Assembly (NCBI RefSeq): GCF_900520355.1
Contig: NZ_LS999521.1
Coordinates: forward strand, 186,001-250,000
Length of the DNA: 64,000 nt
DNA from: Acinetobacter calcoaceticus
GTDB taxonomy: Bacteria > Pseudomonadota > Gammaproteobacteria > Pseudomonadales > Moraxellaceae
Direction: 5' to 3'
In this document: in pieces, positions 37,624 to 52,034 of the stretch
Numbering within the stretch: position 1 is the first letter of the stretch
Layout: every line of letters begins with the position of its first letter
Notes under the pieces: generated by a model
The model's database searches: none
Seen by the model: only the letters and a program-made list of their open reading frames with translations
Told to the model about the DNA's origin: nothing
Made by a program: the position numbers and the translations under genes

Positions 37624-38220
37624 ATGCGTGGTGTAAATAAGGTTATTTTGGTTGGTACTTTGGGTCGTGATCCTGAAACAAAAACTTTTCCAAATGGGGG
37701 CTCGTTGACTCAATTTTCAATCGCGACAAGTGAAGCTTGGACCGATAAAACTTCGGGTGAACGTAAAGAACAAACAGAATGGCACCGTATTGTTTTGCAT
37801 AACCGTTTAGGGGAAATTGCTCAGCAGTTTTTACGTAAAGGTTCTAAGGTTTATATTGAAGGTTCATTACGTACGCGTCAGTGGACTGATCAAAATGGCC
37901 AAGAGCGCTATACAACAGAAATTCGTGGCGAACAGATGCAAATGTTAGATGGTCGTCAACAAGGTGAACAAGGTCTCGCTGGCGGTAATGATTTTAATCA
38001 ACCGCGTTTTAACGCACCTCAACAAGGTGGCAATGGTTATCAAAATAATAATAACCAAGGCGGTGGTTATAACCAAAATAGTGGTGGCGGCTATGGCAGT
38101 AACCCAGCTGGTTTTGGTAATGGTGGAAACAGTAACCCACAATCTGGTGGTTTTGCTCCAAAAGCTTCACAACAGCCTGCGTCTGCACCAGCTGATTTAG
38201 ACGACGATTTACCGTTCTGA
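37624..38220 (+). CDS. ssb: Single-stranded DNA-binding protein
   Basis: SSB coats single-stranded DNA during replication, recombination and repair. The 198-residue protein has an OB-fold N-terminus ([20 protein letters not shown]), a low-complexity Gly/Asn/Gln linker (about 120-170) and the acidic tip DDDLPF that recruits partner proteins. It is intact and marks the left boundary of the genomic island that begins right after its stop. Confidence 0.96.
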
Positions 38221-38237
38221 GATACACTAGAGATATA

Positions 38238-38327
38238 GTTTTGTAAATTTTATAAAATTATTCTTTATTAATAGGTAGTTATGAAAGAAATTTACAGATA
38301 CTAGAAATGGTTCTGTAAATTTTTTTA
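38238..38327. repeat. TGTAAATTT repeat cluster at the island's left end
   Basis: GTTTTGTAAATTTTATAA begins near 38238 and GTTCTGTAAATTTTTTTA near 38310; they match at 15 of 18 positions. Between them lies the inverted copy AAATTTACAGA (38288-38298), which forms a perfect 11-base inverted repeat with TCTGTAAATTT (38312-38322), 13 bases apart. The hairpin plus T run could be the ssb terminator. The clustered repeats right before the recombinase genes also fit recombinase binding sites. Confidence 0.5.
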
Positions 38328-38375
38328 CTTCTAATTTATTATATTTAATACTTAGACTTTTTGTTAAATTTAACC

Positions 38376-39602
38376 ATGATGTCTGTTAAAAGATTTGTAA
38401 TGAGTAGTGGTGAGCGATTTGCTGTTCTTTTGGATAGTAATGGTGTTCCTATGACTTACCCAAATTTATATACGATCATTCATTTAAGAAATCGTGGTCA
38501 ATCAATCAATACAATTTCAGCTCTTTTAGAAGATATTAAGTTGCTTTTCCAGTTGTTAGATAATTTAGGAATTGACTTGGAACAAAGGGTAAAAAGTAAA
38601 GATTTTTTGAAATTAAATGAAATCGAAGCTATAGCAAATTTAGCTAGTTTCAGTCGTAGTCGATTAGATGGAATGGCTTCAAATAAAAAAATTATAAATT
38701 TTCCCAAAAGTAATAACAGAGAGCGATCTAGAGCAAAACTGGTTGCTACTCAGGATTATGTGTCCAAACAATTAATATATAGGCGTTTAACTAATTTTGC
38801 TGAATATATTGGATGGTTAGAGACGTATTTTCATTCATCAGCAATAACAAGTACAAAACGTTTCTTAACATCTCGTAGACCTCAAAAATCCATGGATACT
38901 CAGTCTGAATATAAGTCCTTTGATAGTGAGCAATTACATAAAATTTTAAAGGCAGTTGATCCTGATACTCAGAATCGTATTTGGGTTTCAGATTACATTA
39001 CTTATAGAAATGAGCTGATTATCTATTTATTTTTATATCTTGGATGTCGTAAAGGCGAATTATTGAATTTAAAAATTACAGATATAACATCTCATCAAGA
39101 TGGCACTGTATATCTTACTATAAGACGTAATGCTCATGATGGGAGTGATTCTAGATTGTATCAACCATTGGTTAAAACTAGAAGTAGATCAATTGCAGTC
39201 AATCAAAACCTAAAGAAGAAATTAGAAACTTATATTTTAAGTTATAGATCAACCGTGTCGAATGCAGAACTTACGGACTATTTGATCTTATCACACAAAG
39301 GACAGCCACTCTCGATCACTGCTCTAGATAAAATTCTCTCTCAAATTTCGAGAACCGTTTTATTTAATGTACATGCACATGCATTTAGACATACTTGGAA
39401 TGATAAATATTCTGAGAAATCGCAAAATCTAGTGTCATCAGGTAGAACTACTGAATCTCAAGTTGAAAATGATCGTGCTTATCTGATGGGTTGGATACCA
39501 AATTCTCAAAGTGCGAGAAGATATTCTAGACGTGCAGAAAATAAAAGAGCTATAGAAGTTGGTTTAAGTATCCAAGAAAAATTTGAGGATGGAAATGAAT
39601 AA
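38376..39602 (+). CDS. Tyrosine recombinase, first of three
   Basis: A site-specific integrase of 408 residues. The catalytic domain contains the first Arg in LGCRKGELLNLKI, HAHAFRHTWNDK (His and Arg of HxxR), GWIPNSQSARRYSRR with the likely nucleophilic Tyr, and a SAM-like N-terminal region (about 1-130). I take ATG 38376 because it has an acceptable leader; a TTG at 38361 is possible. Its stop overlaps the next recombinase by eight bases. Integrases in such trios act together to move the element. Confidence 0.85.
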   Translation: MMSVKRFVMSSGERFAVLLDSNGVPMTYPNLYTIIHLRNRGQSINTISALLEDIKLLFQLLDNLGIDLEQRVKSKDFLKLNEIEAIANLASFSRSRLDGMASNKKIINFPKSNNRERSRAKLVATQDYVSKQLIYRRLTNFAEYIGWLETYFHSSAITSTKRFLTSRRPQKSMDTQSEYKSFDSEQLHKILKAVDPDTQNRIWVSDYITYRNELIIYLFLYLGCRKGELLNLKITDITSHQDGTVYLTIRRNAHDGSDSRLYQPLVKTRSRSIAVNQNLKKKLETYILSYRSTVSNAELTDYLILSHKGQPLSITALDKILSQISRTVLFNVHAHAFRHTWNDKYSEKSQNLVSSGRTTESQVENDRAYLMGWIPNSQSARRYSRRAENKRAIEVGLSIQEKFEDGNE

Positions 39603-41151
39603 ATCACTTCTAGTCGATAGTTTCGATAAATCAAAAAATACCTTTATCTCATTCAAAGGATATGAATTTCATGTTTTTGATAACAAATGGTTTTTGGATA
39701 TTAATGCAACTTTAAAGTTAAATTATGTAAACTTCTTGAAAGAAGATGTGAAATACGATGTTCTATTAACTCTAAGTAATTTTGCTCAGTATTCTTCAAG
39801 TTCTCATACTGCTAATATGAATAAATATATTGCAAAGTATGTTGAGATTACACAGCAAGATCATTTCTCAGTTGAAGGCCTTTTAAATTATAAAAATTTT
39901 TATTCGTCAAAAAAAGATGAATACAAAGTAGCAATGCTACGAGTTTTTTTGAAAAAACTATATGACTTGGGTTATTCCTCAGTAGATGATGAAATTTACG
40001 ATTTAATGGATTCATGGAGATTAAGTGGCAATGAAAAAGGAGCAGCAGTTCTTTCCCTTGATCCAGATGAAGGCCCATTTAGTCCATTTGAATTTCAAGC
40101 AATTATCACTAGAACCAACGAATATTTAGCAGAAAAAAAGATTTCTTATTATGAGGCTGCTTTAATTCGTATTTTCTGTGCGACTGGTAGACGACCAATC
40201 CAAATTGCTGGATTAAAGGTTAAAGACCTATACATGACTGATAAGTATAATTTTAGTGATAAAAAAGAAGTTCATATACTTAATATCCCAAAAGCTAAAG
40301 TTAGAGGCGCTAGTGGCTTCCGATTTACTTTTAGTGAAGTAGGAATTCGTGAAAGTATTGCGAAAATTTTATTTGAGCATATTCAAATTCTAAAGCAGAG
40401 ACTAACTAAACAGATAAAGCGAGAGTTATCTGAACAGGAGCTTGCAGAGCTACCCCTATTCTATGATTTTGAGAAATTAACTAATCTGGATTGGGGAAAT
40501 CAAAATGAAATTTTAGAAATTTTGACAAATGAAATCATTCATATGCCGACCAATGAATTAACCCAATTATTAAAAGGGGCGGTAAGCAAGCTTGGTATCC
40601 GCTCTAGGGAAACTGGTCAACCAATATACATTAATGCATATCGGTTTCGTTACACGCTTGGAACAAATGCTGCTCGACAGAAAGCAGGCGTAAATGTCAT
40701 TGCAAAGCTGTTAGATCATCATGACACCCAGAATGCACATTGCTATGTACAAAGTGTTCCTGAAATTGCACAGCAAATATCATCCATCATGGATGAGAAC
40801 TTACGCAAATATGCAGATGCTTTTCAAGGAAAAGTTGTTAGTGATGAGACTGAGGCTCACTTACAAGTTAAAGATGCGAATCGAATATCTTGTGTAGAAC
40901 AGGACTGTGATGTTGGCTCATGTGGAACACATCAATATTGTAGAGATCATGCGCCTGTAGCATGTTACCTATGTAGTAAATTTATGCCATGGGCAAAAGC
41001 CCCTCATCAGCTTGTTTTAGAAATGTTAATAAAAGAGCGAGATGATCTAATAACAATGGGTTGTAGCCTTGAGGTTGCTTCCGTGAATGATCGAGCTATT
41101 ATTGCTGTTCAGCAAGTAATTGATGCTTGTCGGGAGTTTAATCATGGATAA
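39595..41151 (+). CDS. Tyrosine recombinase, second of three (GmtY-like)
   Basis: A 518-residue recombinase. The catalytic half holds FCATGRRPIQIAGLK (Arg), AYRFRYTLGTNAARQ, where Tyr replaces the usual His of HxxR, and LLDHHDTQNAHCYVQ with the His and nucleophilic Tyr. The C-terminal 80 residues are cysteine-rich (CVEQDCDVGSCGTHQYC, CYLCSKF), as seen in Tn554-like TnpA/TnpB partners. It overlaps the flanking recombinase genes by eight bases at each end (ATGAATAA, ATGGATAA). From memory the layout fits the Gamma-Mobile-Trio recombinase GmtY; no search was possible. Confidence 0.75.
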   Translation: MNKSLLVDSFDKSKNTFISFKGYEFHVFDNKWFLDINATLKLNYVNFLKEDVKYDVLLTLSNFAQYSSSSHTANMNKYIAKYVEITQQDHFSVEGLLNYKNFYSSKKDEYKVAMLRVFLKKLYDLGYSSVDDEIYDLMDSWRLSGNEKGAAVLSLDPDEGPFSPFEFQAIITRTNEYLAEKKISYYEAALIRIFCATGRRPIQIAGLKVKDLYMTDKYNFSDKKEVHILNIPKAKVRGASGFRFTFSEVGIRESIAKILFEHIQILKQRLTKQIKRELSEQELAELPLFYDFEKLTNLDWGNQNEILEILTNEIIHMPTNELTQLLKGAVSKLGIRSRETGQPIYINAYRFRYTLGTNAARQKAGVNVIAKLLDHHDTQNAHCYVQSVPEIAQQISSIMDENLRKYADAFQGKVVSDETEAHLQVKDANRISCVEQDCDVGSCGTHQYCRDHAPVACYLCSKFMPWAKAPHQLVLEMLIKERDDLITMGCSLEVASVNDRAIIAVQQVIDACREFNHG

Positions 41152-43267
41152 TTTAATATATTTCCCATCTGTTAAAATCCAGTCTCCTTACTCCGAAATT
41201 AAGCGGTTCATTGACTTTGTTAAACAGTTATCAGAGTTAAATGAAGATATTAAATTCTATGAGAATTATTGGAAAGGCGAAGTAAACTTTGTCAAAACAG
41301 GCATCTCATCCAAAGATAGATCACCCGAAAATCTTTTGCACAATTCAATTCTAGAATTTGCCAAGGCGTATGTTAAGTATCAAAGAATTAATCGTAAGTT
41401 AAAAACTCAAGATACGATTCTAGCAATTCGGGCAATAGAACAAATATGTTTATATCGATATGGTGAAGTTGATTTAACTAAATTGATTATTGCTGATTTT
41501 GACTTGGCTGCTGAAAATACAAAGGAAAATTATAAAGCAAGCTCTGCTTACCATGTGGGAAGACACCTAAAGATTCTTTTAGACTTTCTTCGCCAATTAA
41601 AAATAGTTGATTTACCAGAATGGAAAAATCCAATTAAAAAAAGTGCTGATAAGTCAATTGTGCTAGATAAGAAGTCAGAGGAATATCGAGCATCTAAACT
41701 TCCTGATGAGAACGCTATTTTTGCATTAGCAGATATTTTCTCACGAAAAGATTCCGAGTTGTCAGATAGAGATATTTTTGTCACCAGTGCTGTAAGTCTG
41801 CTTCTAGCTGCGCCTGAACGAGCATCAGAGCTGTTTTTTCTAAAATATAATTGTATCCATGAGGAAGAAGTTCAAACGTTTTCTAAGAGCAATTTAGGTC
41901 TTCTAACAGATAGCTCTAATATTGAGAAAGTATTAGGTATTAGGTGGTATGCACAAAAAAATTATGGGTATGATATTAAATATATCCCAAGTGTCATGAT
42001 TCCAACAGTCAAACGAGCCATTCAGCGTTTGATTAAGATGTCAGAAAAGCCAAGACGTTTAGCATATTTAATTGAGACAAGTGATAAATTTCCTAGACAT
42101 GAACTTTGCCCTGATATTGCTGATGATAAGTTACTTAGTTGTGCAGAGGTTTTAAGAGCGATGGGATTTGATGAATCCTTATATTCATCTACTGTACAAG
42201 CACGGGATGCAGCTTTAAGTTTTTTATGCTCTAGGAAAATACCAAGTGAGGATTATGTAGTTAGTTTAGAGGACTTGAATATAATTTTGCGTAATAGATT
42301 ACCGAAGGGCTTTCCTTATGTACCTTTTAAGACTGGTAATGGGGTTCAGGTTAAATGGTCAGAAGCTTTATTTTGTGGTTTTGTAAATCAATTTCATTCT
42401 AATAAATTAACTATATTGTCAGAGTTATGGATGCCGAAGGTTGGTACTTTAGGTGAAGATTTATCTCCAACCAGAAAAAAGCTACGTGGAAAAGATAAGT
42501 TATCAAATGTGCGATCTATTTTTCAGCGGTGGGGACATGGCAATTACAGTATGACAACTCATCAATTTCGGCATTTATTGAATACCATAGCAAATACGAA
42601 TGGAATGGATAACTTATTACTCGCTAAATGGTCAGGACGAGCTGATATGAAGCAAAATCGAGTATATGACCATACCACGGTTGAAAATCGTAATTATGGC
42701 TTAATCCAAATGCAGAAAAATGAGGTCGGTACAGTAAAGACCGATAGTACATTTACATTTCAGATTTCTACACCTCGCACTCTACAGGAGCTAAATACCA
42801 AAACAACATTGTCCATGCACACTACGGAGTTTGGACTTTGTACACATTCATATATTGATGAACCCTGCCTAAAATATAGAAACTGTCTCAACTGTACCGA
42901 ACATGTGTGTATCAAAGGTGATGCAGAAAAGAAAAAGCGGCTTCAAGATCGACTAAAAAAAGAAAAAATCCTATGGGTAAAGGATAAGGAGGCAGTTAGT
43001 AAGAATGTTACTGGTGCAACAGTCTGGTTGGAGATGAGAGAACTAACGATTAAACGTTGTGAAAAGATGATTGCACTATTGGATGATCCAAGCATTCCTT
43101 ATGGTACACCTTTAAGTCTCCCCCCTTCTGAAGATGTCACTCATCTTGATTTAGCGTATCAAAAGGCAGGTCGTAAACGCATCCCCGTTATTGAGAATAC
43201 TCAACGTAGACAGATTGAAAAGCAGCAAGTTTTGCATGACTCTTTGTTGTTGGATTTATGGAGTTAA
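41144..43267 (+). CDS. Tyrosine recombinase, third of three (GmtZ-like)
   Basis: A large, 707-residue recombinase. The N-terminal 200 residues are helical. The catalytic part has LLAAPERASELFFLKY (Arg), MTTHQFRHLLNTIAN (HxxR), AKWSGRADMKQNRVYDH with Trp and Tyr, and a C-terminal cysteine cluster (CTHSYIDEPCLKYRNCLNC). GGGAG lies eight bases ahead of ATG 41144, which overlaps the previous gene. Size, position and cysteine cluster recall Tn554 TnpB and the integrase GmtZ of Gamma-Mobile-Trio islands; the GMT name is inference. Confidence 0.75.
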   Translation: MDNLIYFPSVKIQSPYSEIKRFIDFVKQLSELNEDIKFYENYWKGEVNFVKTGISSKDRSPENLLHNSILEFAKAYVKYQRINRKLKTQDTILAIRAIEQICLYRYGEVDLTKLIIADFDLAAENTKENYKASSAYHVGRHLKILLDFLRQLKIVDLPEWKNPIKKSADKSIVLDKKSEEYRASKLPDENAIFALADIFSRKDSELSDRDIFVTSAVSLLLAAPERASELFFLKYNCIHEEEVQTFSKSNLGLLTDSSNIEKVLGIRWYAQKNYGYDIKYIPSVMIPTVKRAIQRLIKMSEKPRRLAYLIETSDKFPRHELCPDIADDKLLSCAEVLRAMGFDESLYSSTVQARDAALSFLCSRKIPSEDYVVSLEDLNIILRNRLPKGFPYVPFKTGNGVQVKWSEALFCGFVNQFHSNKLTILSELWMPKVGTLGEDLSPTRKKLRGKDKLSNVRSIFQRWGHGNYSMTTHQFRHLLNTIANTNGMDNLLLAKWSGRADMKQNRVYDHTTVENRNYGLIQMQKNEVGTVKTDSTFTFQISTPRTLQELNTKTTLSMHTTEFGLCTHSYIDEPCLKYRNCLNCTEHVCIKGDAEKKKRLQDRLKKEKILWVKDKEAVSKNVTGATVWLEMRELTIKRCEKMIALLDDPSIPYGTPLSLPPSEDVTHLDLAYQKAGRKRIPVIENTQRRQIEKQQVLHDSLLLDLWS

Positions 43268-43268
43268 C

Positions 43269-43688
43269 ATGTCACAACATTTAACGGATCAGAATATTCA
43301 AGATATTGTTGAAATTCTTGATTATTGGCCACCAAATGAAAAGTTAACATGGGAGCGATTATGCAAAGCGATTGAAGTACAACTAGAACTTGTGCCTGCA
43401 CCAACTCGTCAAACCCTACAGAAATTTGCAAGAATTAAGAATGCTTATGATCTAGGGAAAAAATCTCCAACAGCTTTAAAAATATTGAAATCAAAGCAAC
43501 AAAAACTTCCTGCGAGCTTGAAAATTGCTCAAGCTAAAATTGAGGCTTTGGAAGCTAAGAATGCCAGATTGGAAAAAGAAAACGCTATGTTGTTAGAACA
43601 GTTTGTAGTGTGGCAATACAATGCTCATAAGTATGGATTAAGTATTGCTAAATTGAATGAGCCGATGAACAAAAAAAGTTCGGATTGA
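43269..43688 (+). CDS. Small coiled-coil partner of the recombinases (GmtX-like)
   Basis: A 139-residue basic protein beginning one base after the stop of the third recombinase, with TGGAG six bases upstream. The first 80 residues look like a compact helical domain (LDYWPPNEKLTWERLCKAIE). Residues about 85-115 form a heptad coiled coil (KIAQAKIEALEAKNARLEKE). No enzyme motif is visible. A small protein at this place parallels TnpC of Tn554 and GmtX of GMT islands, which assist recombination. That role here is inferred from position. Confidence 0.65.
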   Translation: MSQHLTDQNIQDIVEILDYWPPNEKLTWERLCKAIEVQLELVPAPTRQTLQKFARIKNAYDLGKKSPTALKILKSKQQKLPASLKIAQAKIEALEAKNARLEKENAMLLEQFVVWQYNAHKYGLSIAKLNEPMNKKSSD

Positions 43689-43775
43689 TTTTAAAAAGTA
43701 AATTATTACACCGCTTAAAAGTGGTATCTGAGTCATATCTTACAAAAATTCGATAAATATCATCAACAGCCATAT

Positions 43776-44090
43776 TTATTGCTCTTTTGATTCTTCAAAC
43801 ACACCTTTTGAGTTTAAAAGCATGTGTTTGATCGGTTGACCAGTTAACTGAGCAATATCCAAAAGATCACAAGTCATTTGTTGCCCTAGTTGCTCACGCC
43901 GAGCAGCTTTAACGATTTCCTGCATGTTTTGAAATTCTTCAAAGCTCAGAACAACAGCTTCGGGCGTATTATTCATACAAACAAAAACAGGTTTATGGCT
44001 ATCTTTGATACATTGAACAATTTTGCTCCAAGATTTGCGCACATCAGTCGCAGAAACAATTGCACCGTTTATAAAAGTTAATCTATCCAT
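43776..44090 (-). CDS. Orphan Phd/YefM-type antitoxin
   Basis: A 104-residue protein. The N-terminal half (IVSATDVRKSWSKIVQCIKD, then KPVFVCMNNTPEAVVLSFEE) has the Phd/YefM antitoxin fold pattern of a DNA-binding antitoxin. No toxin gene lies beside it: only 87 bases separate it from the recombinase operon, and upstream there is a gene-free gap. It may be an orphan antitoxin, a regulator or an anti-addiction factor. It is transcribed against the flanking genes. Confidence 0.7.
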   Translation of the reverse strand: MDRLTFINGAIVSATDVRKSWSKIVQCIKDSHKPVFVCMNNTPEAVVLSFEEFQNMQEIVKAARREQLGQQMTCDLLDIAQLTGQPIKHMLLNSKGVFEESKEQ

Positions 44091-44411
44091 ATCTAAGACC
44101 TTATACTTTATTTCAAAGATACTCTAAGCATTAGTGATTTAATTTAATTCTTAGTCACCGACTTGAAACAAGAATGAGCGGTAGGGTGGAACAGGAATCA
44201 GTGGTAGGTTTATGCTTGAATATAAATCTAGGTTTTGGTCATTGTACTGCCTCTAACATATTCAATAATCATTAGAAAATGACCTAAACTTTTTATAGAT
44301 TTATTATCGCAATTTCTTTACATTTTCTATAATGAAAAATGTAATTTTGAATCTTATTCCGAATGTAAAAAAATAAATTTTAAATTGTGCAAATTAAAAA
44401 TAGGGAAATCT
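44091..44411. other. Gap between antitoxin and ATPase genes, with probable IS end remnant
   Basis: About 320 bases. The stretch 44171-44208 contains two similar 15-mers, AGAATGAGCGGTAGG and GGAATCAGTGGTAGG, 23 bases apart. Repeats of the form GAATnAGnGGT are typical of IS21-family ends, so this may be the scar of a lost insertion sequence. The rest is AT-rich and should contain the promoters of the two divergent genes. A 34-codon frame at 44174 lacks coding character. Confidence 0.4.
44171..44208. repeat. Imperfect 15-base direct repeats
   Basis: AGAATGAGCGGTAGG (44171-44185) and GGAATCAGTGGTAGG (44194-44208) agree at 12 of 15 positions with a 23-base period. They resemble the multiple terminal repeats of IS21-family elements, but no transposase remains. 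Confidence 0.55.
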
Positions 44412-46625
44412 ATGCTTACTGGAATTTATATAAATAACGTTGCCACTTACAATGTACCAACACAATTAGACGGTTTAAAGCAGATAAATTTTATATTTGG
44501 GGCAAATGGGTCTGGAAAAACTACAATTGGTAGAGTTATAGATCAATCATCAGGCTACACACATTGTTTACTTCAATGGTTTGGTGAGGAACCAATAAAA
44601 ACTCTCGTCTATAATAAAGATTTTATTGATCGTAATTTCAATCAAGAAAATACCGTTAAAGGAGTTTTTACCCTAGGTGACGATCAAGTTGAGGCAGAAC
44701 GTCAAATTGCTTTATTACGCCCACAAATCGATAAAGCAAAGAATGATATACGTGGGTTAAACATTCAACTTAATGGTGAAGCCAACCAAGGTGGTAAAGT
44801 CGCTGAGAAAGCAGCATTAGACCCTGAAATTCAAGCAAAATGTTGGCAAAAAAAACAAAAGTATGACTCATATTTTCAGGACGCTTTTACTGGATTTAGA
44901 AATAGTGCAGAAAGATTTAAAGATAAAATTCTATTGGAAAAACAAATAAATACATCAATTCTTTTATCATTAGAAGAGTTAAAAGAGAAAGCCTCTACAA
45001 TATTTTCAAGTAACGTCGAAAAATACAATCTTATTTCAGCTTTTAATGCTTCTACACTTGTTGGAGTAGAAGCAAACCCGATTTTACAAAGAATAATTAT
45101 TGGTAATCAAGATGTTAATATCTCTAAGCTCATAGAAACTATAGGTAATAGTGATTGGGTTAAACAGGGCCGTGAACATTTTGAAAAAAGTTACCCCCAA
45201 TGCCCTTTTTGCCAACAAATAACTCCACCAAGTTTTTCTGATGAATTACTTCAATTTTTTAGTGAAACATATGAGCAGGAAGTAGGGATTGTTGAACAAC
45301 TATTTAGGCAATATCTAGACACATCTGAAATAGTATTAAATGCAATTCAATTCATAAGTAGTCAAAATACACCTTTTTTAGAAATAGAGCTTTTTCAAGC
45401 AGAAGCTCAAATACTCAATGAGCGCTTGGAGCGAAACAAGGGCATCTTACAAAGGAAATTGTCAGAACCGAGCCTAAAAGTTTCTCTAGAACCATTAGAA
45501 CCCATTATTAGTAAAATCTTAGATCTGATCCAAGATGCAAATCAAAACATTATGCTACACAATCAAGTTGTCCACAACCTCGCGACTGAAAAGCAGAACC
45601 TTACAAATCAAGTTTGGAAATACATTATAAATGAGTTAGATAGTGACTTAAGTACTTATTTACAAAATAAGGCGAGACTCGAATCCACCATTACTGGAAT
45701 GAACAATAGCTTAATACAAAAAAGAGAAATTTTAGATAATTTAGAAGCCCGACTAAAAGTATTTGAAAAGAAAGCTACGTCAACAATACCGACAGTAAAT
45801 GAAATAAACGATCTTCTCAAATCATTCGGCTTTACTTCATTTTATATAAACCGTGTAGATGAACAAGGCCATTATAGAATTTGCCGAGCAAATGGAGATG
45901 ATGCTAGCCGATCTTTGAGTGAAGGTGAAAAGACATTTATAACTTTCCTCTATTTTTATTCACTTATAAAAGGCTCCCATTCTTCATCAGGAATTACCGA
46001 AAATAGAATTGTAGTCTTTGATGACCCTATTTCTAGTTTAGATAGTGATATTCTCTATATTGTAAGCAGCCTCATAAAGCGTGTATTTGATCATGTTCGC
46101 ACTAAAAATACTTTGATTAAACAAGTTTTTGTTTTGACCCATAACGTTTATTTTCATAAAGAAATTACTTTTAATAACAAACGAAGTCAGAATCAAATCA
46201 TAAGTGATGAAACCTTTTGGATGGTCAAGAAAAATTCTAGCGGATCTACTATTGAAAAATGCTCTGAGAACCCTATTCGTTCAGCCTATGAACTACTCTG
46301 GTCAGATATAAAAACCAATAATCAGTCAAACCTAACTATTCAGAATACATTACGTCGAATTCTTGAAAACTATTTCACAATGTGGGGTGGTATGAAAAAA
46401 GATGAAATTTGTGATCTTTTTGAAGGAAATGAAAAGCTAATTTGTCAGTCGTTATTTGCATGGGTCAATGATGGTTCACATTCAATCCATGATGATCTGT
46501 ATATTAACCACGGGCAACAAACTAATGAATCCTATTTATCTGTTTTTAAAGAGATTTTTCATAGGTCTGGTCAATCAGGTCATTATCAAATGATGACAGG
46601 TAGTTTAACAGATGGTATGTCTTGA
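44412..46625 (+). CDS. RloC/PrrC-like anticodon-nuclease ATPase
   Basis: A 737-residue protein predicted to be a phage-defence anticodon nuclease. It has an ABC-type ATPase head with Walker A (FGANGSGKTTIGRV, about 29-42), a long helical insert with a CPFC zinc-hook-like motif (about 264-267), signature LSEGEK (about 502-507) and Walker B VVFDDPISSLDSD (about 534-546). The C-terminus holds an Arg-x3-Glu (RRILE, about 648-652) and a His (NDGSH, about 690), matching the Arg-Glu-His triad of PrrC and RloC. RloC senses DNA damage and cuts tRNA. The tRNA target here is unknown. ATG 44412 is preferred over TTG 44385. Confidence 0.75.
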   Translation: MLTGIYINNVATYNVPTQLDGLKQINFIFGANGSGKTTIGRVIDQSSGYTHCLLQWFGEEPIKTLVYNKDFIDRNFNQENTVKGVFTLGDDQVEAERQIALLRPQIDKAKNDIRGLNIQLNGEANQGGKVAEKAALDPEIQAKCWQKKQKYDSYFQDAFTGFRNSAERFKDKILLEKQINTSILLSLEELKEKASTIFSSNVEKYNLISAFNASTLVGVEANPILQRIIIGNQDVNISKLIETIGNSDWVKQGREHFEKSYPQCPFCQQITPPSFSDELLQFFSETYEQEVGIVEQLFRQYLDTSEIVLNAIQFISSQNTPFLEIELFQAEAQILNERLERNKGILQRKLSEPSLKVSLEPLEPIISKILDLIQDANQNIMLHNQVVHNLATEKQNLTNQVWKYIINELDSDLSTYLQNKARLESTITGMNNSLIQKREILDNLEARLKVFEKKATSTIPTVNEINDLLKSFGFTSFYINRVDEQGHYRICRANGDDASRSLSEGEKTFITFLYFYSLIKGSHSSSGITENRIVVFDDPISSLDSDILYIVSSLIKRVFDHVRTKNTLIKQVFVLTHNVYFHKEITFNNKRSQNQIISDETFWMVKKNSSGSTIEKCSENPIRSAYELLWSDIKTNNQSNLTIQNTLRRILENYFTMWGGMKKDEICDLFEGNEKLICQSLFAWVNDGSHSIHDDLYINHGQQTNESYLSVFKEIFHRSGQSGHYQMMTGSLTDGMS

Positions 46626-46842
46626 TTAGAAATAGTTTTAGTTTTGAATGCAAAATACTGGATATAGTATTCAACTTATGAAAATGCGATATTCCATTTG
46701 ATGTTTGTGAAAGTGACTTATTTTATATTTTTGTGTTAAATATTAGCCACTTAAATATCATTTTTTCAGATATTTTTATTTTTTAATTAACATTATTCTA
46801 CAATTTGTTAGTATTGATTAAATTTTTATTTTGAGATCTCAT
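46626..46842. other. AT-rich spacer between the two cargo units
   Basis: About 215 bases without a gene. It probably contains the promoter of the helicase operon. A ten-base palindrome TGAGATCTCA lies just before ATG 46843. Confidence 0.4.
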
Positions 46843-48972
46843 ATGATAGATGTGATCCATGGAACAACAGATAAACCTGTTACATCAAAACAGCTTCAAG
46901 ATGCTGTTCAACAAATAAAAGAATTAGATGGAACTTTATATTTAGGTTATCCAATTATAGGTACTGTTGATGGTGCCTATGAAATAGATGCACTTTTAAC
47001 GTCTCCTCAACATGGAATTATTGCCTTTATTTTGGTTGAAGGGACTGAATTACCAGAAGATATATTAGATATACAAGACACGTGTTTTACGATGTTGTCT
47101 GCAAAGCTTATTCAATACAAAGAGCTTTTAAAAAGAAGGCAACTGGATGTAGATGTACGAGTTTTAACATTTTCACCAGCCGTATCAAATGGTCAAGAAA
47201 GCCTTGAAGAAGATAGTCTTATAATTACACAAGCTTCATCTTTAACTAATTATCTTAAAAATGAACAATTCGATAATTCTGAAAAATATAAGCAGATTGT
47301 AAGTGCTATTCAAGCTGTTTCAAAAGTAAAAGTAGGAAAAAAAAGGAATCCGCAACAACCCAACTCTAGAGGGGCTAAATTAGTAAAGCTAGATCAATCT
47401 ATTACAAATTTAGATTTACAACAAAGTAAAGCCGTACTTGAAACAGTTAATGGTGTTCAGCGTATTAGGGGATTAGCAGGTTCAGGAAAAACTATTGTTT
47501 TAGCTAGAAAAGTGGCTTATTTACATGCTAAAAATCCTGATTGGAAGATAGCGGTTACTTTTAATACAAGATCATTAAAAAAGCAATTTGAAACTTTGAT
47601 AACAAGTTTTGTTTATGAGCAAACTAATGAACTCCCCGACTTCGAAAAAATTAAAATTATTCATGCTTGGGGCAGTCCCTCTATGGAAGGGGTGTACTAC
47701 AATTCCTCATTAGCAACAAATTCAAAATATTATGATTTCCGAACTGCAAAAATGTTTAGACGACCATCTGATCAAAATGAGTTTGATTTTGCGTGTAAGT
47801 CTTTATTAGATCAAAAACAGTCATTCCCGACTTTATATGATCTGATCTTAATTGATGAAGCTCAAGATTTTGCACCATCTTTTTTACAGCTCTGCTATAA
47901 GCTTTTGGATAAAAATAAACGACTTATATACGCATATGACGAGTTGCAAACACTTTCAGAGAGTTCAATGCCTAACCCTGAAGATATTTGGGGGAAAGAT
48001 GAACAAGGGCGACCTTTGGTCAGTTTAAACACTAATGATGGTGAGCCTGAAAGAGATATTATTCTTGATACTTGTTATAGAAATCCTAGACCAGTACTAA
48101 CTTCAGCGCATGCTTTAGGTTTTGGTATATATCGTAAAGTTCCTGAAGGTAAGCTGCCTTTAGTGCAAATGTTTGATTATGCTCCTCTCTGGAATGATAT
48201 TGGATATGAAGTCGTTGAAGGTAACTTAACTGAAGGTGAAAAAGTACGTTTGGCGAGGACGCTTAAATCAAGCCCTGACTTTTTAGAGAATCATTCAGAA
48301 ATTGATGATTTAATAGAGTTTAGGACATTCAATACAGAAGAAGAACAGATTAAGTATTTGGTAGCTTCAATTAAGAAAGATATTGAAGAAAATGAGTTAA
48401 AGCCTGAAGACATTATGATAATTCATCCAAATGCTTTAACTGCTAGAGATAAATTTGGTCCAGCTAGGTATGGCTTATATGACGAAGGGATTAACTCAAA
48501 TCTGGCAGGTGTAACGATTTCTCCTGATGATTTTTCACAAGATGATAGTGTTACATTTACCTCCATTTTTCGGGCAAAAGGTAATGAAGCGCCAATGGTT
48601 TATGTGATCAATGCTGACTATTGTGCTCAAGGTATTGGACTGGCAACAAAAAGGAATATTCTTTTTACAGCTATGACGAGAACTAAAGCATGGTTGAGGG
48701 TATTTGGCGTTGGTTCTGGTATGAAAATTTTGGAAGACGAATTTCAGGAAGTAAAAAGAAATAACTTTTCACTTTCATTCACATATCCAACGGAAGAACA
48801 GAGACAACATTTAAGAATTGTGAACAGGGATTTATCAGATAAAGATAAAAAAAGAATTCAAGCTAGGAGAAAATTCTTAGAAAACTTGATTAAGGATTTA
48901 GATGAAGGTGTTCTTCATAAAGAGGATTTAGACCCAGATGTATTACAAAGATTTAAAGATATTTTTGGGTGA
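46843..48972 (+). CDS. SF1 (UvrD/PIF1-like) helicase with degenerate nuclease-like N-terminus
   Basis: A 709-residue protein. The N-terminal 160 residues resemble a NERD/PD-(D/E)xK fold (YEIDALLTSPQHGIIAFILVEG), but where the usual ExK lysine should stand there is Glu-Gly, so nuclease activity is doubtful. The rest is a superfamily 1 helicase: Walker A RGLAGSGKTIVLARK (about 208-222), motif II LIDEAQDF (about 336-343), the conserved FRAKGNEAPMVYVIN and the terminal arginine-finger region NILFTAMTRTKAW. It is followed after six bases by a small partner gene. ATG 46843 is preferred over TTG 46831. A phage-defence role is inferred from island context. Confidence 0.75.
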   Translation: MIDVIHGTTDKPVTSKQLQDAVQQIKELDGTLYLGYPIIGTVDGAYEIDALLTSPQHGIIAFILVEGTELPEDILDIQDTCFTMLSAKLIQYKELLKRRQLDVDVRVLTFSPAVSNGQESLEEDSLIITQASSLTNYLKNEQFDNSEKYKQIVSAIQAVSKVKVGKKRNPQQPNSRGAKLVKLDQSITNLDLQQSKAVLETVNGVQRIRGLAGSGKTIVLARKVAYLHAKNPDWKIAVTFNTRSLKKQFETLITSFVYEQTNELPDFEKIKIIHAWGSPSMEGVYYNSSLATNSKYYDFRTAKMFRRPSDQNEFDFACKSLLDQKQSFPTLYDLILIDEAQDFAPSFLQLCYKLLDKNKRLIYAYDELQTLSESSMPNPEDIWGKDEQGRPLVSLNTNDGEPERDIILDTCYRNPRPVLTSAHALGFGIYRKVPEGKLPLVQMFDYAPLWNDIGYEVVEGNLTEGEKVRLARTLKSSPDFLENHSEIDDLIEFRTFNTEEEQIKYLVASIKKDIEENELKPEDIMIIHPNALTARDKFGPARYGLYDEGINSNLAGVTISPDDFSQDDSVTFTSIFRAKGNEAPMVYVINADYCAQGIGLATKRNILFTAMTRTKAWLRVFGVGSGMKILEDEFQEVKRNNFSLSFTYPTEEQRQHLRIVNRDLSDKDKKRIQARRKFLENLIKDLDEGVLHKEDLDPDVLQRFKDIFG

Positions 48973-48978
48973 TTGAAT

Positions 48979-49644
48979 ATGCCTTTAACTCCTTCAGATA
49001 TTATCAATGAAATTAGAGCCATAGATGAGCTTTTCTTTAAGAATAGTTTAATTGATAAATATAATAGTTATTCGTTAAAAGAGCATCCTGAAAATAAAAC
49101 AGAGATATGTATTTCATCATGTAAAGATATTTCCTTTACTTTATCGTCTATGAGCTATAAAGATTTATATGATGAATCTTATAAAAGGAACCTTTTTAAT
49201 TACTTAATGTTAGATGGAGCAATCATCCAATTAAATTATTTATTTAATAAAAATAAAATTTATAAACATCGATTAGCCTATTTACCAAATCCAAATATGG
49301 AAGCTTTTCAGCATGAACCAGATATTTATATTGAGCAACCAATGTATGCTGAAATTATAGAGCCTTCTATAGTTCCAGTTCCAATTAGGTTTGATTATGA
49401 TGAAACGGCATTTGAGGAGTTTAACCATCCAAAAAGCCACTTAACATTAGGTCAATATAAAAATTGTAGAATTGCTACAAGTTCACCTGTATCACCTCTA
49501 GTTTTTATCGATTTTGTTCTTAGAAGTTTTTATAACACTGCATACAAAAGCTATAACCAAGGCATTCGATATCCGAAAAGGTTTTTTGAGCCTACTATTA
49601 CGGAAGGTGAAAAAAGTTTTCTACATATGAATATGATTAGATAA
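48979..49644 (+). CDS. DUF2290-like partner protein of the helicase
   Basis: A 221-residue protein with no enzyme motif that I recognise. The C-terminal half contains HPKSHLTLGQYKNCRIATSS, VSPLVFIDFVLRSFYNTAYK and a following basic stretch, which I recall as the hallmark of DUF2290. It begins six bases after the helicase stop with GGGTGA ahead of ATG 48979, so it is co-transcribed. DUF2290 proteins of unknown function occur next to such helicases elsewhere. The family name is from memory and needs a profile search. Confidence 0.65.
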   Translation: MPLTPSDIINEIRAIDELFFKNSLIDKYNSYSLKEHPENKTEICISSCKDISFTLSSMSYKDLYDESYKRNLFNYLMLDGAIIQLNYLFNKNKIYKHRLAYLPNPNMEAFQHEPDIYIEQPMYAEIIEPSIVPVPIRFDYDETAFEEFNHPKSHLTLGQYKNCRIATSSPVSPLVFIDFVLRSFYNTAYKSYNQGIRYPKRFFEPTITEGEKSFLHMNMIR

Positions 49645-50371
49645 ATAAACCTATCCTAAAATCTTTAATTTAAAAATTTTATTTGATAAAATTAAGTAAA
49701 ACAGTGGTCTAAAATTCTCAATCCATCCTTGGAATAAAAATCTGTTAGTTCTTCAACTTTTAGAAGACTTAATTGTTTCTGAATTTCTTCTATGCGTTTT
49801 TTGAGAAGGAAGTTTTCTCTGAACTATAGAATTTTTTTAGATGCGAAAATACATAAACAGCGTGCAATATTCCTTTATTATTTTGAGGTTCATGTTTCCA
49901 AGGAAAATAAATATTTTTATTTGTTGAGAGATAAAAATCATATTTTTTTCTAATAATGATAGTAGAAAATGCATAGTTTCATGAATGGGTTAAGTACCAA
50001 ATATTGTGCTTAACAGGATACATCTTCCAATCAAAAATTACCTGTCTCGAAATCATTGACCACTGAATTAGTCTGTATACAACCAAGCATCCACTAATCA
50101 GGCAAATCTAAAGATTTGTGTCTGGATCTATTACAAGGTGTTATGTGTAAGCAGATAGCCAATCAAAGTGGATTATGAATTGATTCCAATGTTGTGAATT
50201 ACAGGATCATTACTCGGCTCGTCATTCTTATGAATACATCCTCTAAAAATAGTAAATTTTTAAAGGATTAGCTATATATTTTAACAATATACTTAACGTT
50301 TATTTATCAAGCAATTGAATTAAAATAACTATTATTTTATTGGTGTATATATCCGTTCTAATCAAAGTTTC
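49645..50371. other. Decayed right end of the island
   Basis: About 730 bases without an intact gene. It contains a frameshifted minus-strand coding remnant (49692-49978) and, around 50110-50230, a plus-strand stretch translating to a helix-turn-helix-like LLQGVMCKQIANQSGL interrupted by stops. The right island junction should lie here; I see AGTAAATTTTTAAAGG near 50248, a weak echo of the left-end repeat. Confidence 0.45.
49692..49978 (-). pseudogene. Frameshifted C-terminal gene remnant
   Basis: On the minus strand, coding-like sequence (IIIRKKYDFYLSTNKNIYFP, WKHEPQNNKGILHAVYVFSH) runs up to an AAAA tract. It then continues in another frame (NFLLKKRIEEIQKQLSLLKV, EELTDFYSKDGLRILDHCFT) to a stop at 49692. 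Joining the frames with one extra or missing base gives about 95 credible residues and a helical end. No start codon remains. The family is not recognised. Confidence 0.35.
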
Positions 50372-50401: not shown

Positions 50402-50725
50402 TTACTCAATTCCAAGTAAACGTAAAAGTGCGGTACCAGCGGCTGCCAAACAAATCACCAATAATAGAGGCACTTTTTTCCAGACCAAGAAAAGCGCTAA
50501 CCCAACACCAAAAATACGCGCGAAACCAGCGAAATGTTGGCCTTCAAAGAGTGTCGTGGTCACTGCAATAGCGCACAGCAAAACAGTTGCGCCGTTTGAC
50601 AATAAAACTTGGTATTTTTCAGAAAAAGTAAACTTGGCACCTAAATGAAAACCAGCAAAACGAATGCTGTAAGTACCGAGTGCAAGTAAGGCTATACCTA
50701 AAATAATGAGTAATTGTTGATTCAT
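50402..50725 (-). CDS. azlD: AzlD-type branched-chain amino acid exporter subunit
   Basis: A 107-residue protein with four membrane segments and the AzlD layout (ALGTYSIRFAGFHLGAKFTF, then LPLLLVICLAAAGTALLRLL-like end). AzlC and AzlD together export branched-chain amino acids and analogues. Its start overlaps the azlC stop by four bases, so the two genes are translationally coupled. It is the first backbone gene to the right of the island. Confidence 0.85.
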   Translation of the reverse strand: MNQQLLIILGIALLALGTYSIRFAGFHLGAKFTFSEKYQVLLSNGATVLLCAIAVTTTLFEGQHFAGFARIFGVGLALFLVWKKVPLLLVICLAAAGTALLRLLGIE

Positions 50726-51390
50726 TTCTTTCTCCCAAATATTAAACCAAAAAGAGAAATTAAAATTGGAAGTCCTGAGGCTAAAAAGGGTGTGGTGATC
50801 AGGGCTAAAGTTGCGCCAGAAAATGCAGCTCTTCGCGTAAATTTATTCTTTAAAGCAGAAAAAGTAAGAGCAATTAAAATGGCGGGGAAAATTGCATCTA
50901 GCCCAAATGTTTTTGGGTCTGGAATAGCAGTTCCAATAAAATAACCAGCGGTTACACCGAGTGGCCAACTGAGCATAATGCATATACCACACAACCAATA
51001 AGCAGCTTTTTTAGTTTCAAAATCAGGTTGTGCCATGCCAAACAAAACACTTTCATCGTTCATGATATGGCAGCCGAAATAACGTAAATATTTACCTCTG
51101 ATTAATTCATTGACCGCAATTCCAAAAGGTAAATGCCTTAAATTGACCAATAGACCTGCAATTGCAGCTGCAATCGGACTACCGCCTACCGCTAAAAAAC
51201 CAATAAAGATAAATTCAGCAGTTCCTGCAAGTACAAAAATCGATAAGCAAAGTGGAATCCACAAGGGGAGGCCATAGCTCGCGGCAAGAGAACCTAAAGA
51301 CATTCCAACTACACTGGTTGCCAGACACACAAAGAAAATTGAGCGAGTGGTGTCTTTACTAAGTTTCTTAATGAGAGAGTATGTGGTCAT
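50722..51390 (-). CDS. azlC: AzlC-family amino acid exporter subunit
   Basis: A 222-residue protein with six or seven membrane segments. Family pieces are the early GMSLGSLAASYGLPLWIPLC and INLRHLPFGIAV-like LVNLRHLPFGIAVNELIRGK. I take ATG 51390 because a -10 TATAAT on the minus strand at 51416-51421 makes the upstream in-frame ATG at 51417 unlikely to be transcribed with a leader. It is divergent from an XRE-cupin regulator with overlapping promoters, so that protein is the probable regulator. Confidence 0.85.
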   Translation of the reverse strand: MTTYSLIKKLSKDTTRSIFFVCLATSVVGMSLGSLAASYGLPLWIPLCLSIFVLAGTAEFIFIGFLAVGGSPIAAAIAGLLVNLRHLPFGIAVNELIRGKYLRYFGCHIMNDESVLFGMAQPDFETKKAAYWLCGICIMLSWPLGVTAGYFIGTAIPDPKTFGLDAIFPAILIALTFSALKNKFTRRAAFSGATLALITTPFLASGLPILISLFGLIFGRKK

Positions 51391-51400
51391 AGCATGATAT

Positions 51401-51469
51401 AACGAACGATTTTCCATTATAATGAATAAGTCTGATTGTTTTGTCAAAATGAACGATCGTTTTTTATAT
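51401..51469. promoter_or_regulatory. Overlapping divergent promoters and operator, azlC / XRE gene
   Basis: Plus strand: TTGTCA at 51441-51446 and TTATAT at 51464-51469 with a 17-base spacer containing the perfect palindrome AACGATCGTT (51452-51461). Minus strand: TTGACA (51442-51447) and TATAAT (51416-51421) direct azlC, with a long 20-base spacer; CATTAT at 17 bases is an alternative -10. A related half-site, AACGAACGAT, lies at 51401-51410. Confidence 0.65.
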
Positions 51470-51485
51470 AGAACGGGTGTGTTGA

Positions 51486-52034
51486 ATGTCTCAGCCAATT
51501 CAAATTATTGCCAAAGGTTTAACTCGTGAGCGCCAAAGAGTAGGGCTTTCATTGGCAGAGGTTGCTCGTCGTGCAGGTGTCGCCAAATCTACACTTTCAC
51601 AATTAGAGGCAGGCCAAGGTAACCCAAGTATTGAAACCTTATGGGCGCTTTGTGTTGCGCTAAATATTCCATTTGCACGTCTGATGGAAGAGCCTAGCAA
51701 TCAGGTACAAGTGATTCGTTGCGGCGAGGGTCCAACAGTGAGTTCAGAGATTGCCAATTACAAGGCAATTTTACTGGCGAATTGTCCGCCTCATGCACGT
51801 CGAGATGTGTATCTACTCATTGTTGAGCCTGGCGAAGACCGTCTTTCTGAACCCCATCCAGTTGGTTCTGTAGAGCACATTATTGTGGTTGAGGGCAAAG
51901 CCTTGGTTGGCTTAATTGATGAAGCTGTTGAGCTCGGTGTTGGAGATTATATTTGTTACCCTGCCGATCAAAAACATATATTTAGAGCCTTAGAAAAGGG
52001 TACAAAAGCTTTATTAATTTCTGAACAAAATTAA
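51486..52034 (+). CDS. XRE-family regulator with cupin domain
   Basis: A 182-residue regulator. The N-terminal helix-turn-helix (GLTRERQRVGLSLAEVARRA, then STLSQLEAGQGNPSIETLWA) is followed by a C-terminal cupin beta-barrel (about 110-180; SEPHPVGSVEHIIVVEGKAL) that likely binds a small effector. It is divergent from azlCD, and the palindrome AACGATCGTT lies inside its own promoter, which suggests self-repression and control of the exporter. The mRNA leader is very short. Confidence 0.88.
   Translation: MSQPIQIIAKGLTRERQRVGLSLAEVARRAGVAKSTLSQLEAGQGNPSIETLWALCVALNIPFARLMEEPSNQVQVIRCGEGPTVSSEIANYKAILLANCPPHARRDVYLLIVEPGEDRLSEPHPVGSVEHIIVVEGKALVGLIDEAVELGVGDYICYPADQKHIFRALEKGTKALLISEQN

What the first reader, a model, noticed from the sequence alone, without database searches (positions are those of the whole stretch)
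46843..49644. Two-gene cargo: SF1 helicase with degenerate nuclease-like N-terminus plus a DUF2290-like partner
Seen: the helicase has Walker A, DEAQ and late SF1 motifs. Its N-terminus looks like a NERD/PD-(D/E)xK domain in which the ExK is changed (ILVEG). The partner starts six bases later and has no known enzyme motif. Known: helicase-nuclease proteins paired with small unknown proteins are common in anti-phage loci. Inferred: this is a self-contained defence unit in which the partner is an effector or sensor. I cannot match it to Gabija (no OLD/TOPRIM protein) or to another named system.
Basis: partly seen in the sequence, partly recalled or inferred. Interest (0 to 1): 0.8.

Follow-up and report, generated by a model that had tools for sequence, protein, structure and literature searches.

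The report
Known Helicase–DUF2290 anti-phage gene pair
These two neighbouring bacterial genes are a new copy of an already published two-gene virus-defence system (a DNA helicase plus a small protein called DUF2290), carried on a mobile island; how the system works is still unsolved, and the conservation seen here suggests the small protein is the enzyme.

Summary
The 709-aa SF1 helicase (46843-48972) and its DUF2290 partner (48979-49644) match PADLOC models "Helicase" (1141.7 bits) and "DUF2290" (258.8 bits). They belong to the published "Helicase + DUF2290" system, reported to inhibit T7 (passage).

The genes travel together. In one sample, own genome included, the same 9 of 398 genomes hold both families. 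In 75 of 80 DUF2290 loci (best 80 of 169) the helicase lies directly upstream.

The N-terminal domain models as a PD-(D/E)xK fold; Schlafen linker domains are among the tied best matches. The catalytic lysine is absent in 63 of 63 aligned sequences. DUF2290 has no convincing structural relative in two libraries, yet D79, R137, D139, H150, H154 and R164 are unchanged in 93 of 93 sequences, which suggests an enzyme.

The pair is cargo of a 12.1-kb GInt-type island at the end of ssb.

Best reading: the helicase senses foreign replicating DNA and releases DUF2290 as effector. Identity is near certain; the mechanism is inferred.

The parts
46843..48972 (+). SF1 (UvrD-like) helicase of the Helicase+DUF2290 system, 709 aa
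   Evidence: PADLOC PDLC03002 'Helicase' 1141.7 bits; Pfam UvrD_C_2, UvrD-helicase, AAA_19 over cut-off; Walker A and DEAQD identical in 54 of 54
46843..47382 (+). N-terminal PD-(D/E)xK-like domain (residues 1-180) without the catalytic lysine
   Evidence: AlphaFold2 pLDDT 83.7, pTM 0.78; nearest PDB folds are PD-(D/E)xK nucleases and Schlafen proteins; D49 in 63 of 63, K at position 65 in 0 of 63
47419..48708 (+). SF1 helicase core (about residues 193-622)
   Evidence: Pfam ranges
48979..49644 (+). DUF2290 protein, 221 aa; proposed effector
   Evidence: PF10053 E 4.4e-48; PADLOC PDLC02999 258.8 bits; model pLDDT 87.7, pTM 0.88; D79, R137, D139, H150, H154, R164 invariant in 83 of 83 and 10 of 10 divergent members
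38219..50359 (+). GInt-type genomic island (about 12.1 kb) that carries the pair as cargo
   Evidence: empty site in related genomes; architecture and ssb site as described in PMC5385486 (passages)
38212..38218 (.). attL core CCGTTCT at the 3' end of ssb (37624-38220; PF00436 E 2.5e-36)
50353..50359 (.). attR core CCGTTCT, next to azlD (50402-50725, -)
38361..39602 (+). ginA-like tyrosine recombinase
   Evidence: Phage_integrase E 1.6e-12
39583..41151 (+). ginB-like tyrosine recombinase (true start may be later)
   Evidence: Phage_integrase 30.2 bits over cut-off, NF041502 555.6 bits
41120..43267 (+). ginC-like divergent recombinase (true start may be later)
   Evidence: weak Phage_integrase E 0.007, below cut-off; order in operon
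43191..43688 (+). ginD-like small protein (true start may be later)
   Evidence: position and size only
44385..46625 (+). Neighbouring cargo: AAA_13 ATPase, PADLOC candidate PDC-S06; not part of the two-gene system
   Evidence: PF13166 E 9.9e-175; PDLC04890 924 bits

Best explanation
The pair is a Helicase+DUF2290 (Rst_HelicaseDUF2290) anti-phage / anti-mobile-element module carried as cargo of a GInt-type island. Proposed mechanism: the SF1 helicase, with its non-catalytic PD-(D/E)xK-fold N-terminal domain, is the sensor and engages DNA intermediates of fast or foreign replication (single strands, forks). The adjacent DUF2290 protein is the effector, an enzyme built on the invariant Asp79, Arg137-x-Asp139, His150-x3-His154 and Arg164 set. 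It is held or positioned by the helicase and released on sensing, harming phage replication or the cell. Shown here: identity, exclusive pairing, co-divergence, absence of the ExK lysine, invariant polar set. Shown by others: T7 inhibition by a homologous pair, and loss of plasmid cost when the PAO1 helicase is inactivated. Inferred: which protein senses, what DUF2290 does, and what triggers it. Identity about 0.97; mechanism about 0.5.
For: Near-full-length hits to both PADLOC models, also for the divergent pairs of two unnamed Acinetobacter genomes and an E. coli plasmid. The same 9 of 398 genomes, own included, hold both families. Helicase directly upstream in 75 of 80 loci, median gap 2 nt, 73 of 74 measured gaps within 30 nt. 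Distances of the two proteins correlate, r 0.83 over 71 pairs, 0 of 2000 permutations as high. In 10 of 10 plasmid records read (of 13 with a match), a gene annotated as ATP-binding domain protein directly precedes DUF2290. K absent at the ExK position in 63 of 63 and 7 of 7 divergent sequences, so the nuclease-like domain is probably not the effector. Six polar residues of DUF2290 invariant in 93 of 93. Literature: T7-specific inhibition (PMC9122126, passages); PA1372 helicase loss abolishes pNUK73 cost and SOS induction (PMC4410645, passages and Discussion); PA1372/PA1371 assigned to this system (PMC11637435, passage).
Against: No biochemistry exists for DUF2290 in the passages read. Its fold has no convincing relative, so the enzyme reading rests on conservation alone, and invariant residues can also be structural. 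In the PAO1 work the compensatory mutations named are in PA1372 and two kinases; PA1371 is not named among them, the kinases are needed too, and the authors read the helicase effect as raised rep expression, not immunity. One full-length DUF2290 gene (L009) has no helicase nearby. Co-divergence is also expected for two genes simply inherited together.
Confidence: 0.6

Rival explanations
1. The helicase is the effector: it loads on phage or plasmid replication intermediates and blocks or unwinds them. DUF2290 is the sensor or loader that recognises a phage protein.
For: Walker A, DEAQD and late-motif residues identical in 54 of 54; T7-only range in the published test fits recognition of one phage component; DUF2290 resembles no nuclease fold in the libraries searched; in PAO1 the helicase, not PA1371, is the gene named as hit by compensatory mutations.
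Against: A pure recognition subunit facing varied phages would be expected to vary, yet DUF2290 keeps D79, R137, D139, H150, H154 and R164 in all 93 sequences checked, out to actinobacterial plasmids.
Confidence: 0.27
2. The N-terminal domain is still a nuclease with a rearranged active site, and DUF2290 is an accessory.
For: PD-(D/E)xK-like fold; D49 in 63 of 63, Q78 in 58 of 63, K or R at position 88 in 63 of 63; D49 and Q78 also 7 of 7 in divergent members.
Against: No ExK lysine in 63 of 63 and 7 of 7 sequences; E66 (62 of 63) is replaced in four of the seven most divergent ones (twice by D), and K/R88 in three.
Confidence: 0.08
3. The pair serves the island (stability, excision, replication control) or the host and is not a defence system.
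For: It sits in a mobile island and often on plasmids.
Against: It also sits on carriers with no gin-like gene annotated, such as the whole 11.4-kb pSSA3_1 record (12 features). Of four genomes with a related gin operon whose cargo I ran against PADLOC, three (G496, G424, G461) have no match to this helicase and carry other candidate defence genes. A homologous pair inhibits T7.
Confidence: 0.05

Closest known systems
Helicase + DUF2290 (Rousset et al. 2022; Rst_HelicaseDUF2290; Helicase-DUF2290)
   Same: Both proteins, gene order and spacing; PADLOC models match over nearly the full length
   Different: Different carrier (GInt-type island at ssb rather than P4-like satellite or prophage); a labelled K. 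pneumoniae helicase relative is 59% identical, but I could not confirm it is the tested strain's protein
PA1372/PA1371 of P. aeruginosa PAO1
   Same: Assigned to the same system in print (passage); PA1372 has a UvrD-like C-terminal domain and is found together with PA1371
   Different: Sequence not compared here; its known phenotype is plasmid cost, not phage resistance
Hachiman (HamAB) and AbpAB
   Same: Helicase plus nuclease pairs with DNA-damage or replication linked triggers (abstract start; passages)
   Different: Different families: no HamA, HamB, AbpA or AbpB model is among the PADLOC matches of either window protein at E up to 1
Gabija
   Same: UvrD-like helicase in a two-gene unit
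   Different: GajB models match weakly (best 21.9 bits against 1141.7) and the partner is DUF2290, not GajA
NERD+UvrD helicases (PADLOC C3a187)
   Same: Second-best PADLOC model for the helicase (61.2 bits); same domain order; in-register but weak N-terminal alignment
   Different: The NERD-type sequences used for comparison keep the ExK (E60, V61, K62 in 6 of 6), this family does not
Group III Schlafens (SLFN5/11/14)
   Different: No Schlafen core nuclease in the protein; other PD-(D/E)xK structures score as well (Cdn1 9.1, Can2 8.8); all 54 helicases also hit UvrD families, and the profile finds PcrA and UvrD1 but no Schlafen chain in the PDB at E up to 1
GInt mobile islands (Bardaji et al. 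2017)
   Same: Recombinase genes plus a small last gene, variable cargo, AT-rich 3' end, insertion at the end of ssb
   Different: Seven identical flanking bases here; the paper gives imperfect repeats of 10-17 nt. Acinetobacter is not named in its main text (0 occurrences)

Membership tests
Helicase + DUF2290 system | Helicase of the PADLOC 'Helicase' family PDLC03002 | tested here: met
   1141.7 bits, positions 1-704 of 707
Helicase + DUF2290 system | DUF2290 partner | tested here: met
   PF10053 163.8 bits against a cut-off of 25; PDLC02999 258.8 bits
Helicase + DUF2290 system | Adjacent, same strand | tested here: met
   6 nt apart
Helicase + DUF2290 system | Restricts T7 | not testable with these tools
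   Reported for a homologous pair (passage)
Gabija | GajA (OLD ATPase/TOPRIM) partner | tested here: not met
   Partner matches only DUF2290 models among 5027 PADLOC models at E up to 1
Hachiman / AbpAB | HamA/AbpA-type nuclease partner | tested here: not met
   No such model among matches of the partner at E up to 1
Active PD-(D/E)xK (NERD-type) nuclease | Fold | tested here: met
Active PD-(D/E)xK (NERD-type) nuclease | ExK catalytic lysine | tested here: not met
   K in 0 of 63 and 0 of 7 divergent sequences
Group III Schlafen | Linker domain of the Schlafen type | tested here: inconclusive
Group III Schlafen | N-terminal Schlafen core domain in the same protein | tested here: not met
   The protein starts with the linker-like domain; the only Schlafen family listed by Pfam is the helicase one
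TumE toxin family | Profile similarity (suggested by RxD...HxxxH, recalled) | tested here: not met
   hhalign E 0.13, no better than unrelated pairs at 0.10-0.35
GInt | ginABCD operon (three integrases and a small protein) | tested here: inconclusive
   Two recombinases over the Pfam cut-off, a third below it, the fourth by position only; no published gin sequence was compared
GInt | Site-specific insertion at the end of ssb with short flanking repeats | tested here: met
   CCGTTCT at both ends, uninterrupted site in relatives; ssb confirmed by PF00436
GInt | Excision as a circle | not testable with these tools
   -

The most novel reading that the evidence does not exclude
Helicase+DUF2290 is a bacterial counterpart of the linker-helicase half of group III Schlafens. 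A dead PD-(D/E)xK domain joined to an SF1 helicase forms a single-strand/fork sensor, as in SLFN11, but the Schlafen tRNA-nuclease core is replaced by a separate effector, DUF2290, which has a fold and active site not yet described.
Probability: 0.15. Interest if true: 0.75.

Novelty: new member of a known kind. Interest (0 to 1): 0.36.

Why it matters
The system is named but its mechanism is not given in any passage I read. The results turn it into a testable question: six invariant residues of DUF2290 to change one by one, and a nuclease-like domain that has lost its catalytic lysine in every sequence examined. The system also bears on plasmid biology, since the helicase of the corresponding pair in P. 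aeruginosa PAO1 is needed for the cost of a small plasmid. If the Schlafen resemblance proved to be homology, it would link a bacterial defence sensor to a human antiviral and chemotherapy-response factor.

Tried and rejected

TumE toxin family: DUF2290's RxD...HxxxH pattern recalled the TumE motif (from memory). I took TumE relatives from a genome search (14 of 185 genomes), selected seven ORFs by motif and compared profiles: background level. Rejected.

SWAVDL = YEID: I considered that the Schlafen SWAVDL signature corresponds to Y46-x-I48-D49. One paper says SWAVDL is helical (PMC12499436, passage), whereas D49 lies between two strands in the model. Dropped.

NERD membership by sequence: Pfam NERD does not hit the window protein and is not among the 25 families shown of 27 for the 54 helicases; profile comparison with six NERD-type sequences is weak (E 0.01, probability 4%) though in register.

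E66 as a replacement catalytic acid: 62 of 63 in the main alignment, but replaced in four of seven divergent members, twice by D.

Phage records: no DUF2290 match by tblastn. Viral contigs gave 5 loci, 4 with the helicase upstream, the fifth starting at a contig end. Rfam: no family at its gathering score in the island. Promoter and terminator scan: fewer sites than in shuffles.

Rows dropped: alignments used parts of the hit lists. A1: window + 65 of 120 listed (of 838). A2: window + 53 of 120 listed (of 6217; itself scored only 8000 candidates). A3: window + 62 of 71 references. A4: window + 28 listed proteins + 54 of 80 loci (recounted). Locus counts rest on the best 80 of 169 confirmed loci, so they favour closer relatives. 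The genus DNA search listed only part of its matches.
Full report
WHAT IS THERE. The window lies in a 3.93-Mb single-contig genome. The genus is Acinetobacter by inference: a same-genus genome, G538, has a contig of 274,536 bases, the length of the named A. proteolyticus contig that carries the closest pair among the GTDB loci. The helicase ORF runs from ATG 46843 to TGA 48972. The partner starts at ATG 48979, six bases on, and ends at 49644.

IDENTITY. The partner is PF10053 DUF2290 (E 4.4e-48) and the helicase has UvrD_C_2, UvrD-helicase and AAA_19 above cut-off. Against PADLOC the helicase matches 'Helicase' PDLC03002 at 1141.7 bits over nearly its whole length and the partner 'DUF2290' PDLC02999 at 258.8 bits; the next models are C3a187 (NERD+UvrD) at 61.2 bits and, for Gabija, GajB at 21.9 bits. 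This is the Helicase + DUF2290 system. Rousset et al. 2022 (PMC9122126; [quoted passage not shown] Other papers use the names Rst Helicase+DUF2290 (PMC12278908, one passage), Rst_HelicaseDUF2290 (PMC11811056, one passage) and Helicase-DUF2290 (PMC10855318, table passage). The full-text searches for DUF2290 (8 papers), HelicaseDUF2290 (3) and PA1372 (9) gave no mechanism in the passages I read; of the first two lists I did not open PMC10925250, PMC11878078, PMC8407307, PMC11291487 or PMC12390725.

THE PAIR IS ONE UNIT. Searching the same sample of 398 genomes of the phylum, own genome included, separately with DUF2290 and with the helicase profile (E up to 1e-60) returned the same 9 genomes. 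The two genes are adjacent in 8; in the ninth they lie on two contigs, the helicase piece at a contig end. From 169 confirmed DUF2290 loci in GTDB contigs the best 80 were kept. In 75 of these 80 the helicase is directly upstream on the same strand, with a median gap of 2 nt and 73 of 74 measured gaps within 30 nt. Of the five exceptions, L067 and L082 start at a contig end. L061 and L081 carry shortened DUF2290 ORFs beside genes that look, by eye, like a transposase and a resolvase. L009 has a full-length DUF2290 without a helicase. Pairwise distances of the two proteins correlate at r 0.83 over 71 pairs, 0 of 2000 permutations reaching it (maximum 0.14); shared descent alone would also give this. 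On plasmids 13 records match; in the 10 I read, a gene annotated 'ATP-binding domain-containing protein' directly precedes DUF2290. In the genus, 29 of 149 genomes match the helicase at E up to 0.001, but only 5 over its full length, at 100, 91, 47, 47 and 40% identity. The other four, read, all carry DUF2290 next to it; the pairs of two of them (G444, G474) were also run against PADLOC and matched both models.

THE PARTNER. DUF2290 gives a good model (pLDDT 87.7, pTM 0.88), but nothing in PDB or BFVD resembles it convincingly. In 83 aligned members Y60, D79, Y87, H97, R137, D139, H150, H154, C163, R164, Y185 and E211 never vary (most recounted). Among ten more divergent members D79, R137, D139, H150, H154, R164 and Y185 still never vary, H97, C163 and Y87 are kept in nine, and Y60 and E211 vary more. 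A set of Asp, Arg and His residues preserved from Acinetobacter to actinobacterial plasmids is what an active site looks like. That is inference from conservation, and structural roles are not excluded.

HOW IT LIKELY WORKS. I propose that the helicase senses DNA intermediates of foreign or fast replication and that DUF2290 is the enzymatic effector. Three lines point this way. First, T7 inhibition by a homologue. Second, in PAO1, loss of the helicase PA1372 removes the cost, SOS induction and transcriptional disturbance caused by plasmid pNUK73 and its Rep protein, while without the plasmid the helicase mutant shows no expression change (PMC4410645, passages and Discussion); PA1372/PA1371 is assigned to this system (PMC11637435, passage). 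Against this, the same paper needs two kinases as well, names no PA1371 mutation in what I read, and explains the effect by raised rep expression. Third, helicase-nuclease defence pairs such as Hachiman and AbpAB act in a comparable way (abstract start; PMC10732053, passages). The chief rival is the reverse division of labour, with DUF2290 as sensor and the helicase as effector.

THE CARRIER. Between ssb (37624-38220, PF00436) and azlD/azlC (50402-51498, PF05437 and PF03591) lies a 12.1-kb island. At least ten of 149 genus genomes show its two flanks abutting. The G450 and G532 sequences read straight through CCGTTCT, which flanks the island on both sides in the window (38212-38218 and 50353-50359). 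Recombination genes at one end, the ssb end as target, variable cargo and an AT-rich tail (49001-50000 is 27% G+C) fit the GInt islands of Bardaji et al. 2017 (PMC5385486, passages); I did not compare the genes with published gin sequences. Other Acinetobacter genomes carry a related operon joined to ssb-side sequence with other cargo. I read the cargo side of five (G496, G424, G461, G444, G435) and ran ten proteins of the first four against PADLOC: six matched a model. These are a PifA-like protein (G496), a strong and a weak type IIG-like enzyme and a weak PbeA hit (G461), a PDC-M68 candidate (G424) and an IetS-like protein (G444), the last beside a 47%-identical Helicase+DUF2290 pair. The window's AAA_13 gene (PDC-S06, 924 bits) looks independent: the pSSA3_1 plasmid carries the pair without it.

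VERDICT. Observation confirmed; identity already known; this copy and its island are a new instance. The open part is mechanism, where the invariant DUF2290 residues and the missing nuclease lysine give direct tests.

Noticed in passing
window 38212-50359: The whole 12.1-kb island is a GInt-type element inserted at the 3' end of ssb with CCGTTCT at both ends; the site is empty in at least ten of 149 genus genomes.
   Followed up: yes
L109, L110, L111, L113 (unnamed Acinetobacter genomes): Related recombinase operons joined to ssb-side sequence carry other cargo; 6 of 10 cargo proteins tested match PADLOC models (PifA-like, type IIG-like, weak PbeA, PDC-M68, IetS-like), so this may be a defence hotspot of the genus.
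   Followed up: partly
window 44385-46625: AAA_13 ATPase (PADLOC PDC-S06). A 94%-identical stretch occurs twice in genome G481, which has no full-length match to this helicase.
   Followed up: partly
window 43776-44090 (-): Phd/YefM-type antitoxin (PF02604 E 1.5e-8) with no ORF of 80 aa or more beside it that could be its toxin.
   Followed up: no
L103 6372-9243 (G444): A 47%-identical Helicase+DUF2290 pair sits in the cargo of a related island: same island type, different version of the same defence system.
   Followed up: partly
L009 7899-8660: Full-length DUF2290 gene in a Crocosphaera contig with no helicase of this family in the 16.7-kb locus.
   Followed up: no
L167 (pTHIMO01): A divergent Helicase+DUF2290 pair lies between a DNA methyltransferase gene and, a few genes on, a PglZ-domain gene, which suggests a BREX-like cluster.
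   Followed up: no
L171 (pMS32-3): DUF2290 is annotated as two ORFs in this A. pittii plasmid record, while a plasmid of nearly the same length and the same replicon cluster has it as one.
   Followed up: no
L002, L166, L172: On small Acinetobacter plasmids the pair is repeatedly next to a BrnT/BrnA toxin-antitoxin pair, and on pSSA3_1 also near tet(39).
   Followed up: no
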